DNA of 64,000 nt from NCBI GenBank assembly GCA_902523535.1, contig CABYZQ010000002.1, positions 1-64,000 on the forward strand, written 5' to 3'. Position 1 is the first letter of the stretch. Each line of letters begins with the position of its first letter. Made by a program: the position numbers and the translations under genes. The notes beneath the pieces were generated by a model. The model did not search any database, had not been told where the DNA came from, and was given only the letters and a program-made list of their open reading frames with translations. The DNA is from an uncultured Pelagibacteraceae bacterium (GTDB taxonomy: Bacteria > Pseudomonadota > Alphaproteobacteria > Pelagibacterales > AG-422-B15). Of the stretch, positions 23,115 to 27,829 are shown piece after piece.

Positions 23115-25172
23115 TCAACCCGTTTTAAGATAATCAATTGCGACATCATTCCTAAATAAATGAAGCAGAACTCTCTGCGCTTTTCCAAGTGGAGATTTTA
23201 ATTGAGGATCATCTTTAATAGTCTTGATAGCTGTTTCCCTTGCTTCTTCTAAGAGATGTTTGTGCTTATCGAGGTTTGATAGTTTAAAGTTTGGCACGCC
23301 ACTTTGCTTGGAGCCAAGAATTTCACCTGCACCTCTTATATCTAGATCTTCTTCAGCAATCTTGAATCCATCATTAGTTTCTTTCATGATTTTAATGCGT
23401 CTTTTAGCGTTTTCAGTTAGAGGGCCGTTAAATAATAAAATGCATGTGGATGTTTTTTCACCTCTTCCAACTCTACCTCGTAATTGATGAAGTTGCGAAA
23501 GACCAAATCTTTCAGCATTTTCAATAATTATTACTGTAGCATCAGGATCATCAATACCTACTTCTATTACTGAAGTAGCGACTAATATATTAACTTTTCC
23601 AGATTTAAATTTTTGCATAACAGAATTTTTATCTTCCTGCTGCATTTGCCCGTGAACAATTTCAACTGAATAATCGCTATAATAACTTCTGAGATCTTTT
23701 AATCTTTCATTAACAGATTGTAGTTGAAGTTTTTCAGATTCATCAACTAAGGGGCAAACCCAATAGATTTTTTCACCTTTATCAATTATTTTGTTAAGAC
23801 TTTTCTTCAGATCTTCAACTTTAGTTATATTTATTGATTTAGTGTTTATTTCTTTTCTATTTTTTGGCTTTTCCATGATTTTAGAAATATCAGTGTCTCC
23901 ATAAGCAGCAAGTTCTAATGTTCGTGGAATAGGAGTGGCGGTCATGAGCAATATATCACAATCGTTCCCTGCTTTTTCATTTAGCAAGATTCTTTGATGA
24001 ACTCCAAATTTATGCTGCTCATCAATCACAACTAAGCCAATATTATCAAAAGAAACTTTTTCTTGAAATAGTGCATGAGTACCAATCAAAATATCAGCGT
24101 TAAAATTATGATTTTCCTTTGTTGAAGATGTTATTAAAGAGCATGTTAAGTCCATTGAATTAATGATCTTTGCTATTGTATTGAAATGTTGTTCTGCAAG
24201 TATCTCAGTTGGCGCCATCAGTATAGATCTTTTTTCATTTTCTAAACATTGCATCATGGCAAATAATGCTACAATTGTTTTACCGCTCCCAACATCACCC
24301 TGTAATAGTCTAAGCATTTTGTTTGGCTTTGATTGATCATGAGATATCTCGTCTATAGTTTTCAATTGATCATTAGTGAGACTGAAATCAAGATTTTCTT
24401 CCAATCGCTTTATAAGTTTATTGTTTCTTTTTATAGGTATGCCTTGAGTATGACTTATTTTATTCTTTATAAGACGTATCGTTAATTGTTGAGCTAATAG
24501 TTCATCAAAAACTAATCTTTCTAAAAAAAGAGAATTAACCGAATCTGATGTATTGACTGGGTTATGTATTTTCTTAATGGCTTCATTCCAATTAGGCCAA
24601 TTATTTCCTTTTATTTTGTCATCAGGTATCCACTCAGGTAGAGGGTCAAGATTAATCAATGCAGAATTTATAGATTTTTGTATAGTTTTTGAGGTTAATC
24701 CTGCAGTAAGTGGATAAATACACTCAATTTTTTTTACGTTATCAAGATTTTCTAAGTCTACTACATGTTGCGGGTGCGTTATTTGAAAGTTTTCATTAAA
24801 TTTTTCAAATTTGCCACTAATTACTTTTTGTCTTCCCACTGGAAATATTTTTTTTAGGTAAGGGCCTCGTAAGTTAAAATATACAATTGAAATTGCCCCA
24901 GTATCATCGGTGCAATTAATGCGATAGGGCATCCTTTTATTGAATGATGGTGAATGACTGTTTATCGTGACTATGATTGTTGCAATTTTACCTTCTTCCA
25001 GATCTACTATTTTTGGACTGTTTCTTCTGTCAATGTATGTAGATGGCTTATGAAATAAGAGATCTATAACGTATTTGCCACATAACCGTTCGATTACCTT
25101 AGCATTTTTTGGTCCAATACCTTTAAGTGATATTATATTTGAAAAAAGCTTGTATAAGATTTTAGGCCTCAT
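23115..25172 (-). CDS. recG: ATP-dependent DNA helicase RecG
   Basis: Helicase that remodels stalled replication forks and Holliday junctions. The N-terminal wedge/OB domain covers about residues 1-220, followed by the SF2 motor: Walker A LLQGDVGSGKTIVA, DEQH box (VIDEQHKFG), TATPIPRT and the C-terminal VATSVIEVGIDDPDATVIIIENAERFGLSQLHQLRGRVGRG. Length 685 aa is normal. Divergent from sdhE (30 bp). Confidence 0.97.
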   Translation of the reverse strand: MRPKILYKLFSNIISLKGIGPKNAKVIERLCGKYVIDLLFHKPSTYIDRRNSPKIVDLEEGKIATIIVTINSHSPSFNKRMPYRINCTDDTGAISIVYFNLRGPYLKKIFPVGRQKVISGKFEKFNENFQITHPQHVVDLENLDNVKKIECIYPLTAGLTSKTIQKSINSALINLDPLPEWIPDDKIKGNNWPNWNEAIKKIHNPVNTSDSVNSLFLERLVFDELLAQQLTIRLIKNKISHTQGIPIKRNNKLIKRLEENLDFSLTNDQLKTIDEISHDQSKPNKMLRLLQGDVGSGKTIVALFAMMQCLENEKRSILMAPTEILAEQHFNTIAKIINSMDLTCSLITSSTKENHNFNADILIGTHALFQEKVSFDNIGLVVIDEQHKFGVHQRILLNEKAGNDCDILLMTATPIPRTLELAAYGDTDISKIMEKPKNRKEINTKSINITKVEDLKKSLNKIIDKGEKIYWVCPLVDESEKLQLQSVNERLKDLRSYYSDYSVEIVHGQMQQEDKNSVMQKFKSGKVNILVATSVIEVGIDDPDATVIIIENAERFGLSQLHQLRGRVGRGEKTSTCILLFNGPLTENAKRRIKIMKETNDGFKIAEEDLDIRGAGEILGSKQSGVPNFKLSNLDKHKHLLEEARETAIKTIKDDPQLKSPLGKAQRVLLHLFRNDVAIDYLKTG

Positions 25173-25202: not shown

Positions 25203-25460
25203 ATGGAAGATTTATCAACATTTCAAAAAAAACTATTATACAAGTCAACTCATCGTGGGTCTAAAGAAATGGATCTAATTTTGGGAAAATTTGCGAATAA
25301 GTATCTAACTTTATTCAATGAAGATGAATTGAAGATGCTTGAAGCAATACTTGAAATGGATGATAACGATATTTACCAATACGCATTAAATAAACAAGAA
25401 ATTCCAGATTCTTTAAGCAATAGAGTATTCACACTGCTTAAAGATTACACTTTATTGTAA
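25203..25460 (+). CDS. sdhE: FAD assembly factor SdhE
   Basis: An 85-aa five-helix protein of the SdhE/YgfY family, which promotes covalent flavinylation of succinate dehydrogenase. The RGSKEMDLILGKF motif at residues 18-30 is the conserved RGxxE loop; the MLEAILEMDDNDIYQY helix also matches. It sits between recG and mfd, a frequent alphaproteobacterial arrangement, and its stop overlaps the mfd start by one base. It is not a missing piece of Mfd. Confidence 0.92.
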   Translation: MEDLSTFQKKLLYKSTHRGSKEMDLILGKFANKYLTLFNEDELKMLEAILEMDDNDIYQYALNKQEIPDSLSNRVFTLLKDYTLL

Positions 25461-27829
25461 TGCCATCAGATGCACTAGTTACAGACTCAACGCTTTCAAA
25501 CTTAAATATTAATTTTGAAAGTGATTTTGATTACGAATACACTCTTAATTACTTATCATCGAACGGGTATGTTAGGGTAAGTTCAATACGTGAACCAGGG
25601 GAGTTTTCTGTAAAGGGTGACGTTATCGATATATTTCCATCAGAATTTGCCAAACCTATAAGAATAAATTTATTTGGTGATAAAATAGAAAAATTTGAAG
25701 AATTTGAATTAAAAACTCAAAAAACTATTCAACAAATTAATAGAGCAATCATTCGACCATTCAATGAATTTGCGTTTAATCAAGGAAAGAGATCAATAAA
25801 AGCAGATACTTTTTTATCTGACCTAAGTAGTTTTGAGGAAAATGATCTAATAGTGCATGCTAATCATGGAATTGGTAAATTTCGAGGCTTAAAGAAATTA
25901 GAAGTCTTAGGAAATAGTCATGATTGTATTGAATTAAATTATTTTAATGATGATAAGCTTTATGTTCCTGTCGAAAATATAGAGCTGCTGAGCAAGTATG
26001 GTGGCAACAACGAGTACGTACAAGTTGATAAATTAGGCAATTCTCATTGGCAATTTAGAAAAGCGAGTGCGAAAAATAAAATTAAAGAAATAGCTGAAGA
26101 ATTAATTATCATTGCAGCAAAAAGATCTTTAAAAAAAGGTAAAAAATATAGAATTCAAGAACCTTACTACTCTAACTTTATTAATGAATTTGAGTTTCAA
26201 GACACTGAGGATCAAGTAACCGCTACATCGGATATTTTATCAGACTTAAGTCATGGTGTGCCTATGGATCGATTGATTTGTGGTGATGTTGGCTTTGGTA
26301 AAACTGAGGTTGCACTGAGAGGCGCATTCAATGTTGCACTGAATGGAGCTCAAGTTGCAATTATAGTTCCCACGACACTTTTATGTCAGCAGCATTATGA
26401 AAATTTTATAAAAAGATTTAAAAATTATCCAATCAAAATAGGTCAATTATCAAGATTAGTTTTAGCCTCAGAAACTAGTTCAACTCTAGAAAAAATAAAT
26501 AATGGGGAGCTTGATATTGTTGTTGGTACACATGCACTACTAGGTAATAAAATAAAATTTAAAAATCTTGGTATGCTCATTATAGATGAAGAGCAGCATT
26601 TTGGTGTTTCCCAAAAAGAAAAAATAAAGAACTTACGGTCAGACATTCACGTATTGTCTCTTACTGCAACGCCGATTCCCCGAACACTTCAAATGTCTTT
26701 GGTGGGATTAAGAGATTTATCTATTATATCTACCGCCCCCTTAAATAGGCAATCTATAGCGACAGTGGTCATAAATTTTAATGAAAAAGACCTTACTAAT
26801 GCTATTGAAAAGGAATTAGAAAGAAACGGACAAATTTATTATGTATGTCCGCGCATCAAAGAATTACAAGAAGTGGAGGATTTTTTAAAAAAGGCAATGC
26901 CTGAACTAAAATATAAAATAGCTCATGGGCAAATGTCACCAAAAAATCTTAAGAATACTATGATTGATTTCTACAATAATGAATTCCAATTATTGTTATG
27001 CACAACTATTGTTGAATCAGGTTTAGATTTACAAAAAACGAATACGATGATCATTCATAATGCCGATAAGTTTGGATTATCGCAACTTTATCAATTGAGG
27101 GGAAGGATAGGCCGCTCAAATATCGAGGCTTTTTGTTATTACACCGTTAAAGATATTAATGGCATTACTGAAAATTCATTTAAAAGGCTTTCTTTGCTTA
27201 AAAAATTTAATAGTAGGGGTTCTAGCTTTAATTTAGCTAGTCATGATCTTGATATGAGAGGCTCTGGCAATATAATTGGTGATGCACAATCAGGTCATAT
27301 AAAGGAAATCGGATTAGAGCTATATCATCGTTTATTAAAAGATAAAATCATAGAACTGAAGAATGATAGTGACTCTATAGATAACGATTGGTCTCCACAA
27401 CTTAATTTAGGTTTAAGTGTCTTAATCCCTGAAAAATATATACCTAACTTAAATACACGATTATTCTTTTACAGGAAATTAGCATATTTAAATTCCAATA
27501 GTGAATTGATTGAAGTTAAAAAAGAAATGGAAGAAAGATTTGGTTTAATGCCAAACGAAGTTAATCACTTATTTAAAATAACTGAATTGAGAATTCTCTG
27601 TAAACAATTAAGTGTAGAGAAATTTGATCTTGGAAAAAAAGGTCTAACAATTAAATTTAGAAATAATAAGTTTGATAAAACTGATAAATTGATTGATTTT
27701 ATAAATCTTAATAAATTTGATATAAAATTAAGAACTGACCAAACACTCGTTTATAACTTTAGTAAAATCAACGATAAACAGAGAATTTACAAAGCTTTTA
27801 GCTTTGCAAAAGAATTGGCCTCGCTATAA
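25460..27829 (+). CDS. mfd: Transcription-repair coupling factor Mfd, domain-trimmed form
   Basis: Translocase that displaces stalled RNA polymerase and recruits UvrA. At 789 aa it is far shorter than the usual ~1150. Residues 1-105 match domain D2 (UvrA-binding part of the UvrB-like module: NGYVRVSSIREPGEFSVKGDVIDIFP), then the sequence passes directly to the RNAP-interaction domain (IVHANHGIGKFRGL, about 130-190). The motor is complete: GDVGFGKTE at 275-283, DEEQ, TATPIPRT, QLRGRIGRS, and so is the C-terminal D7-like domain (NTRLFFYRKLA, ERFGLMP). Domains D1a, D1b and D3 are missing. No frameshift or upstream coding remnant is seen; the start TAATG is fixed by the sdhE stop. Confidence 0.93.
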   Translation: MPSDALVTDSTLSNLNINFESDFDYEYTLNYLSSNGYVRVSSIREPGEFSVKGDVIDIFPSEFAKPIRINLFGDKIEKFEEFELKTQKTIQQINRAIIRPFNEFAFNQGKRSIKADTFLSDLSSFEENDLIVHANHGIGKFRGLKKLEVLGNSHDCIELNYFNDDKLYVPVENIELLSKYGGNNEYVQVDKLGNSHWQFRKASAKNKIKEIAEELIIIAAKRSLKKGKKYRIQEPYYSNFINEFEFQDTEDQVTATSDILSDLSHGVPMDRLICGDVGFGKTEVALRGAFNVALNGAQVAIIVPTTLLCQQHYENFIKRFKNYPIKIGQLSRLVLASETSSTLEKINNGELDIVVGTHALLGNKIKFKNLGMLIIDEEQHFGVSQKEKIKNLRSDIHVLSLTATPIPRTLQMSLVGLRDLSIISTAPLNRQSIATVVINFNEKDLTNAIEKELERNGQIYYVCPRIKELQEVEDFLKKAMPELKYKIAHGQMSPKNLKNTMIDFYNNEFQLLLCTTIVESGLDLQKTNTMIIHNADKFGLSQLYQLRGRIGRSNIEAFCYYTVKDINGITENSFKRLSLLKKFNSRGSSFNLASHDLDMRGSGNIIGDAQSGHIKEIGLELYHRLLKDKIIELKNDSDSIDNDWSPQLNLGLSVLIPEKYIPNLNTRLFFYRKLAYLNSNSELIEVKKEMEERFGLMPNEVNHLFKITELRILCKQLSVEKFDLGKKGLTIKFRNNKFDKTDKLIDFINLNKFDIKLRTDQTLVYNFSKINDKQRIYKAFSFAKELASL

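What the first reader, a model, noticed from the sequence alone, without database searches (positions are those of the whole stretch)
25460..27829. A naturally minimal Mfd: D1a, D1b and D3 absent, UvrA-binding D2 kept
Seen: 789 aa, beginning at the segment equivalent to about residue 127 of E. coli Mfd and jumping from the end of D2 (about residue 105 here) to the RNA-polymerase-interaction domain (about residue 130), then a complete motor and D7-like end. Known: D2 binds UvrA; D1a, D1b and D3 complete the UvrB-like module and neighbouring region, and D7 restrains activity. Inference: streamlining removed exactly the domains not essential for polymerase removal and UvrA recruitment. The start is fixed by the TAATG overlap with sdhE, and no remnant of the missing part exists upstream.
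Basis: partly seen in the sequence, partly recalled or inferred. Interest (0 to 1): 0.8.

Follow-up and report, generated by a model that had tools for sequence, protein, structure and literature searches.

The report
Natural short Mfd in SAR11 relatives
A family of tiny-genome ocean bacteria related to SAR11 makes a natural, one-third-shorter version of the DNA-repair protein Mfd that has lost most of its regulatory front end but kept the one small domain that calls in the repair enzymes, while the sister family has lost the gene altogether.

Summary
ORF 25460-27829 is a 789-aa Mfd. It aligns to E. coli Mfd from about residue 114, jumps from 220/221 to 458/460, and ends at 1145. D2, RID, motor and D7 are present; D1a, D1b and D3 are absent. 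sdhE overlaps the start, and no detached N-terminus was found in the 84%-complete genome. The same junction occurs in four genera of one SAR11-order family, which form one clade in a tree of the motor region. Sister-family genomes (about 190, many complete) have no mfd. The other alphaproteobacterial Mfds sampled are mostly full length. In 398 genomes sampled across the phylum, only this one has D2 fused directly to the RID. The gene is under strong purifying selection (dN/dS about 0.04; D2 about 0.09); UvrA, UvrB and UvrC are present. AlphaFold2 gives a folded D2 on a disordered linker. Arg165 (UvrA and D7 contact) is Lys in 36/36 short forms, and Asp1048 on D7 is mostly Glu; both are invariant in 72 full-length Mfds, so the clamp appears rewired. 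It is not the most minimal natural Mfd: other reduced genomes carry D2-less forms of 701-822 aa. I judge it a real new variant of a known protein; its function is inferred.

The parts
25460..27829 (+). mfd, short transcription-repair coupling factor, 789 aa
   Evidence: TIGR00580 913.7 bits, above cut-off 800; conserved clade-wide
25505..25771 (+). D2 (UvrB_inter, UvrA-binding domain), residues 16-104
   Evidence: Pfam PF17757 2-91/91, E=2.9e-20; pLDDT 74-88; matches 4dfc chain A (93-aa Mfd fragment) at 31-95, E=3.8e-8
25772..25831 (+). linker, residues about 105-124; deletion junction at residues 107/108 (Eco 220->460), the right side matching the E. coli D3-D4 linker
   Evidence: alignments; pLDDT under 50 at 103-123
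25832..25999 (+). D4/RID, RNA polymerase interaction domain, residues 125-180
   Evidence: PF02559 E=6e-20
26213..27118 (+). SF2 motor D5-D6 (DEAD + Helicase_C matches, residues 252-553), catalytic residues kept
   Evidence: Pfam; Walker A, DEEQ, R685/T710/T868/H842 equivalents kept
27410..27688 (+). D7 TRCF domain, residues 651-743, with clamp residues E689, E692, R693, F694
   Evidence: PF03461 E=2.7e-25; residue comparison
25203..25460 (+). sdhE, immediately upstream, 1-bp TAATG overlap with mfd
   Evidence: Pfam Sdh5 E=1e-21; sequence
23115..25172 (-). recG, divergent neighbour marking the ancestral recG / sdhE-mfd locus
   Evidence: synteny in f1, f2 and full-length alphaproteobacteria

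Best explanation
It is a functional, streamlined transcription-repair coupling factor. SHOWN by sequence: in the ancestor of one SAR11-order family the region before D2 and the stretch between D2 and the D3-D4 linker (D1b + D3) were lost, leaving D2 - about 20-aa linker - RID - motor - D7; the gene remains coupled to sdhE and under purifying selection. INFERRED: the RID binds the RNA polymerase beta subunit, the D5-D6 motor pushes on upstream DNA and removes stalled polymerase, and D2, now a flexibly tethered domain rather than part of a rigid UvrB-homology module, recruits UvrA2(B). Loss of D1-D3 and the altered D2-D7 contact (R165->K, D1048->E/N/V) should weaken or rewire the autoinhibition known from E. 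coli, giving a more constitutively active translocase and a less masked UvrA-binding surface.
For: Domain content and junction. Same junction in four genera, one clade with 99/99 support. Tight sdhE-mfd overlap in all genera examined. dN/dS about 0.04 overall, D2 about 0.09. Motor and DNA-contact residues kept. UvrA, UvrB and UvrC present. D2 folded, linker disordered in the AF2 model. Arg165 and Asp1048 invariant in 72/72 full-length Mfds and in 7/7 reduced-genome Mfds that retain D1a-D2, but changed in 36/36 and 33/36 short forms. In E. coli, deletion of D1-3 or of the UvrB homology module, or substitution on either side of the D2:D7 surface, derepresses ATPase and translocation while polymerase is still displaced; D2 residues R165/R181/F185 are needed for UvrA interaction and strand-specific repair, whereas D7 is dispensable (PMC3025350). 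DNA binding swings D2 off D7, and D1a-D2-D1b moves as a rigid body (PMC7385628). A 93-aa Mfd fragment (4dfc_A) is in the PDB and matches D2; that this is the UvrA-D2 complex, i.e. that D2 suffices for binding, is from memory.
Against: No biochemical or genetic data exist. R165 is one of three residues whose joint alanine substitution abolished UvrA interaction in E. coli; Lys here is conservative but untested. K52 and E692 keep opposite charges in most of genus g1, so the clamp may still close. Other lineages lost D2 while keeping UvrA, so retention of D2 is not forced by UvrA's presence. The sister family dispenses with Mfd altogether.
Confidence: 0.68

Rival explanations
1. Repair-uncoupled form: the short Mfd still removes stalled RNA polymerase, but D2 no longer recruits UvrA and is kept only as a folding or regulatory partner of D7; the lineage is part-way to losing Mfd, as the sister family has.
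For: Arg165, a UvrA-contact residue, is Lys in all 36 short forms; R193 is reversed to Glu in most; D2 evolves faster than the motor (dN/dS 0.09 vs 0.024); the sister family has no mfd; D2-less Mfds exist in genomes with UvrA.
Against: R181 and F185 are kept (Y in two); D2 is still under strong purifying selection and none of the 36 short forms examined across four genera lost it; UvrABC are intact.
Confidence: 0.2
2. The missing domains are encoded elsewhere and act in trans (split Mfd).
For: The genome is only 84% complete.
Against: A full-length alphaproteobacterial Mfd N-terminus (478 aa) finds only the D2 of this gene and UvrB in the genome; sdhE occupies the upstream position in every genus.
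Confidence: 0.04
3. Artefact or decaying gene: an assembly join, mis-called start, or pseudogene.
For: One relative (L104/G028) has a frame-broken copy; another (L095/G027) reads through from sdhE into mfd.
Against: The same architecture is in more than 30 independent assemblies over four genera; dN/dS about 0.04; all catalytic motifs intact; the frame allows at most 6 further residues upstream.
Confidence: 0.02

Closest known systems
E. coli Mfd (TRCF; PDB 2eyq, 6x26, 9n11)
   Same: D2, RID, SF2 motor, TRG motif, D7 in the same order; catalytic and most DNA-contact residues kept; 36-38% identity in the structural alignments with 2eyq, 6x26 and 9n11
   Different: lacks D1a, D1b and D3 (Eco about 1-112 and 221-459); R165->K, D1048->E; about 360 residues shorter
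Engineered E. coli Mfd deltaBHM / deltaD1-3 constructs (PMC3025350)
   Same: N-terminal autoinhibitory module gone, RID-motor-D7 kept
   Different: those constructs lack D2 and so lose UvrA recruitment; the natural form keeps D2 on a short linker
Natural D2-less Mfds in other reduced genomes (G649 717 aa; G389/G487 778/822 aa; G453 701 aa)
   Same: independent natural N-terminal truncations in small genomes
   Different: start after D2 (Eco 418-469 onward); G649 groups with E. coli in the tree
UvrB (domain 2 / UvrB interaction domain)
   Same: D2 is homologous to UvrB domain 2 (matches UvrB models and PDB chains)
   Different: no UvrB damage-recognition domains; attached to an RNAP-binding translocase

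Membership tests
Mfd / transcription-repair coupling factor | TIGR00580 curated score (800 bits) | tested here: met
   913.7 bits
Mfd / transcription-repair coupling factor | RNAP-interacting domain (CarD_TRCF_RID) | tested here: met
   PF02559 1-56/57
Mfd / transcription-repair coupling factor | SF2 motor with Walker A, DEE[QH], TRG region | tested here: met
   residues conserved in 17/17 short forms
Mfd / transcription-repair coupling factor | C-terminal TRCF/D7 domain | tested here: met
   PF03461 2-94/95
Mfd / transcription-repair coupling factor | complete UvrB homology module D1a-D2-D1b | tested here: not met
   only D2 is present. This module belongs to the canonical architecture but is not required by the curated family model, which the protein passes; D2-only is therefore recorded as a variant of Mfd
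Mfd / transcription-repair coupling factor | UvrA-contact residues R165, R181, F185 | tested here: inconclusive
   R181 kept 36/36, F185 F or Y, R165 is Lys in 36/36
Mfd / transcription-repair coupling factor | displaces stalled RNAP and recruits UvrA | not testable with these tools
   needs biochemistry
RecG | TIGR00643 cut-off of 659 bits | tested here: not met
   376 bits, motor only; recG is a separate gene at 23115-25172

The most novel reading that the evidence does not exclude
An Mfd that works with D2 as a freely tethered UvrA-recruiting domain and with a rewired, largely lost D2-D7/D1-D3 clamp: a naturally de-repressed transcription-repair coupling factor, showing that the UvrB-homology scaffold and D3 are dispensable for coupling and forming an intermediate between full-length Mfd and complete loss in SAR11.
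Probability: 0.4. Interest if true: 0.7.

Novelty: new variant of a known kind. Interest (0 to 1): 0.52.

Why it matters
It is a natural deletion experiment on a much-studied molecular motor. It predicts which parts of Mfd are needed for coupling transcription to repair (D2, RID, motor, D7) and which are mainly regulatory scaffolding (D1a, D1b, D3). The clade-wide, mostly charge-keeping change at the D2-D7 contact gives a directly testable claim about how autoinhibition is relaxed. It also places three states of one locus side by side: full-length mfd in most alphaproteobacteria, the short form in one SAR11-order family, and no mfd in the other.

Tried and rejected
- Upstream or alternative start: rejected, only 6 more in-frame codons. 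- Detached N-terminal domains elsewhere in the genome: none found (genome 84% complete). - Lateral transfer or several origins of the short form: rejected, one clade, though its place among long-branched reduced alphaproteobacteria is uncertain. - 'Unique smallest Mfd': rejected, D2-less forms of 701-822 aa exist. - 'D2 retained because UvrA is retained': weakened, D2-less relatives also have UvrA. - R165->K as plain AT-driven drift: seven reduced-genome alphaproteobacterial Mfds that keep D1a-D2 have Arg 7/7 and D1048 7/7. - Excess of changed near-invariant columns in D2+D7 over RID+motor: 5/19 vs 12/137, one-sided Fisher p=0.04, with related sequences, so weak. - Using the structural superposition to test whether D2 docks on D7: uninformative, rmsd 4-31 A with flexible domains. 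- Apparent absence of mfd in some family members (G015, G024, G063): these also lack a recG hit, so probably an assembly gap at this locus. - G336 (807 aa): cut by the contig end, not counted as short. - Literature on Mfd in SAR11 or on natural truncations: nothing relevant in the held library. Buchnera having a short Mfd is my recollection, not tested.

Full report
WHAT IS THERE. The ORF at 25460-27829 (+) encodes 789 aa; the frame is open for only 6 more codons upstream. The gene shares TAATG with sdhE (25203-25460) and faces recG (23115-25172, minus strand). It passes the curated Mfd model TIGR00580 (913.7 bits, cut-off 800). Pfam gives UvrB_inter (=D2) over its whole length at 16-104, the RNA polymerase interaction domain at 125-180, the SF2 motor, and TRCF (D7) at 651-743. 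Alignment to E. coli Mfd (fetched as L149) is ungapped from about Eco 113 to 220, jumps to 460, and then runs to 1145. A larger alignment puts the jump at 221->458 in all six representatives from four genera. PDB phmmer finds the same two blocks.

NOT AN ARTEFACT. The same short form (788-804 aa stop-to-stop; one at 891 because sdhE reads through, one at 727 cut by a contig end) is present in more than 30 independently assembled genomes. Named records are SAGs/MAGs deposited as 'uncultured Pelagibacteraceae bacterium' AG-xxx, that is, SAR11 relatives. dN/dS against about 95%-identical relatives is about 0.04 for the gene, 0.02 for the motor and RID, 0.09 for D2, and 0.3-0.6 for the 15-residue N-terminal tail. 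So D2 is selected and the tail is not.

DISTRIBUTION. In a 247-genome sample of the order, 38 genomes have mfd, all in one family (f1; genera g1, g7, g8, g9). None of the genomes of the sister family f2 has it, although many are complete. The f2 genomes checked keep UvrA (six) and UvrC (two), and in five examined the recG-sdhE pair is still there with no mfd after it. Three full-length alphaproteobacterial loci whose upstream region was held show DUF502 / recG / sdhE-mfd with a 1162-1171-aa mfd frame, so this order is probably ancestral. In the class sample the listed Mfds are nearly all 1125-1300 aa. The f1 short forms are one clade in a tree of the motor region (99/99). Family members without mfd that were checked (G015, G024, G063) also lack a recG hit, which points to an assembly gap.

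HOW UNUSUAL. A profile of the D2-RID junction (A1) searched in 398 genomes of the phylum matched end to end only in the window's own genome; elsewhere the two halves match separately. However, other reduced genomes have lost even more: G389 and G487 (778 and 822 aa, matching Eco 418-1121), G453 (701 aa, Eco 469-1105) and G649, a 1.0-Mb complete genome (717 aa, Eco 459-1140) that groups with E. coli. G389, G487 and G453 still have UvrA. Hence natural N-terminal truncation of Mfd has occurred several times; keeping D2 alone is what is special here.

MECHANISM, STEP BY STEP. (a) Polymerase removal: RID, Walker A, DEEQ, R685, T710, T868, H842 and R953 equivalents are kept in all or nearly all short forms; inferred to work. 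(b) UvrA recruitment: D2 is predicted well folded (pLDDT 74-88) on a disordered linker (103-123, pLDDT under 50). R181 and F185, two of three residues tested together for UvrA interaction in E. coli (PMC3025350), are kept; R165 is Lys in 36/36. UvrA, UvrB and UvrC are present. Inferred to work, less certain. (c) Regulation: in E. coli, removing D1-3 or the UvrB homology module, or mutating either face of the D2:D7 contact, derepresses the motor (PMC3025350), and DNA binding breaks the R165/R181-D1048/F1050 contact (PMC7385628). In the short clade both R165 and D1048, invariant in 72 full-length Mfds, are changed: R165 to Lys in all, D1048 to Glu in 29/36, Asn in 3, Val in 1, and kept as Asp in 3. 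Lys with Glu keeps the charges, so most of genus g1 may still close a weaker clamp; genus g8 (Asp-Asn-Gln-Tyr at 1045/1048/1049/1050) and one g7 member (Glu-Val-Thr-Phe) have largely lost that side. Reduced-genome Mfds that keep D1a-D2 retain Arg and Asp 7/7, and two of three D2-less ones have changed D1048, as expected if it is a D2 contact. Derepression is therefore the likeliest consequence, but it is inference.

COMPARISON AND VERDICT. It is an Mfd by the curated model and by motor, RID and D7, and it differs from canonical Mfd in lacking D1a, D1b and D3. I therefore call it a new variant of a known kind. No report of this form or of mfd loss in SAR11 was found in the held library, which is incomplete.

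Noticed in passing
f2 genomes, e.g. L182, L183, L184, L185, L186: The sister SAR11 family (complete genomes) has no mfd at all, while recG and sdhE remain adjacent; UvrA present in all six checked and UvrC in the two checked.
   Followed up: partly
L095 3656-6328 (G027): One extra A in a homopolymer at the sdhE/mfd junction puts sdhE and mfd in a single 891-aa open frame: a fusion or a one-base sequence error.
   Followed up: partly
L104 (G028): mfd is broken into two frames overlapping around query residues 434-478: pseudogene or sequence error.
   Followed up: no
L232 2277-4427 (G649), L201 3349-5682 (G389), L233 2504-4969 (G487), L202 1747-3849 (G453): Independent natural Mfds lacking D1a, D2 and D1b (and D3 in G649 and G453) in other small genomes, some with UvrA retained.
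   Followed up: partly
L203 2167-5199 (G276), L204 2015-5095 (G526): Mfds of 1011 and 1027 aa that keep the D2 region but appear reduced between D2 and the RID.
   Followed up: no
window mfd D2, position equivalent to E. coli R193 (about window 25700): Arg193 of D2, near-invariant in full-length Mfd, is Glu in 31/36 short forms, a charge reversal; perhaps its partner lay in the lost D1a/D1b.
   Followed up: no
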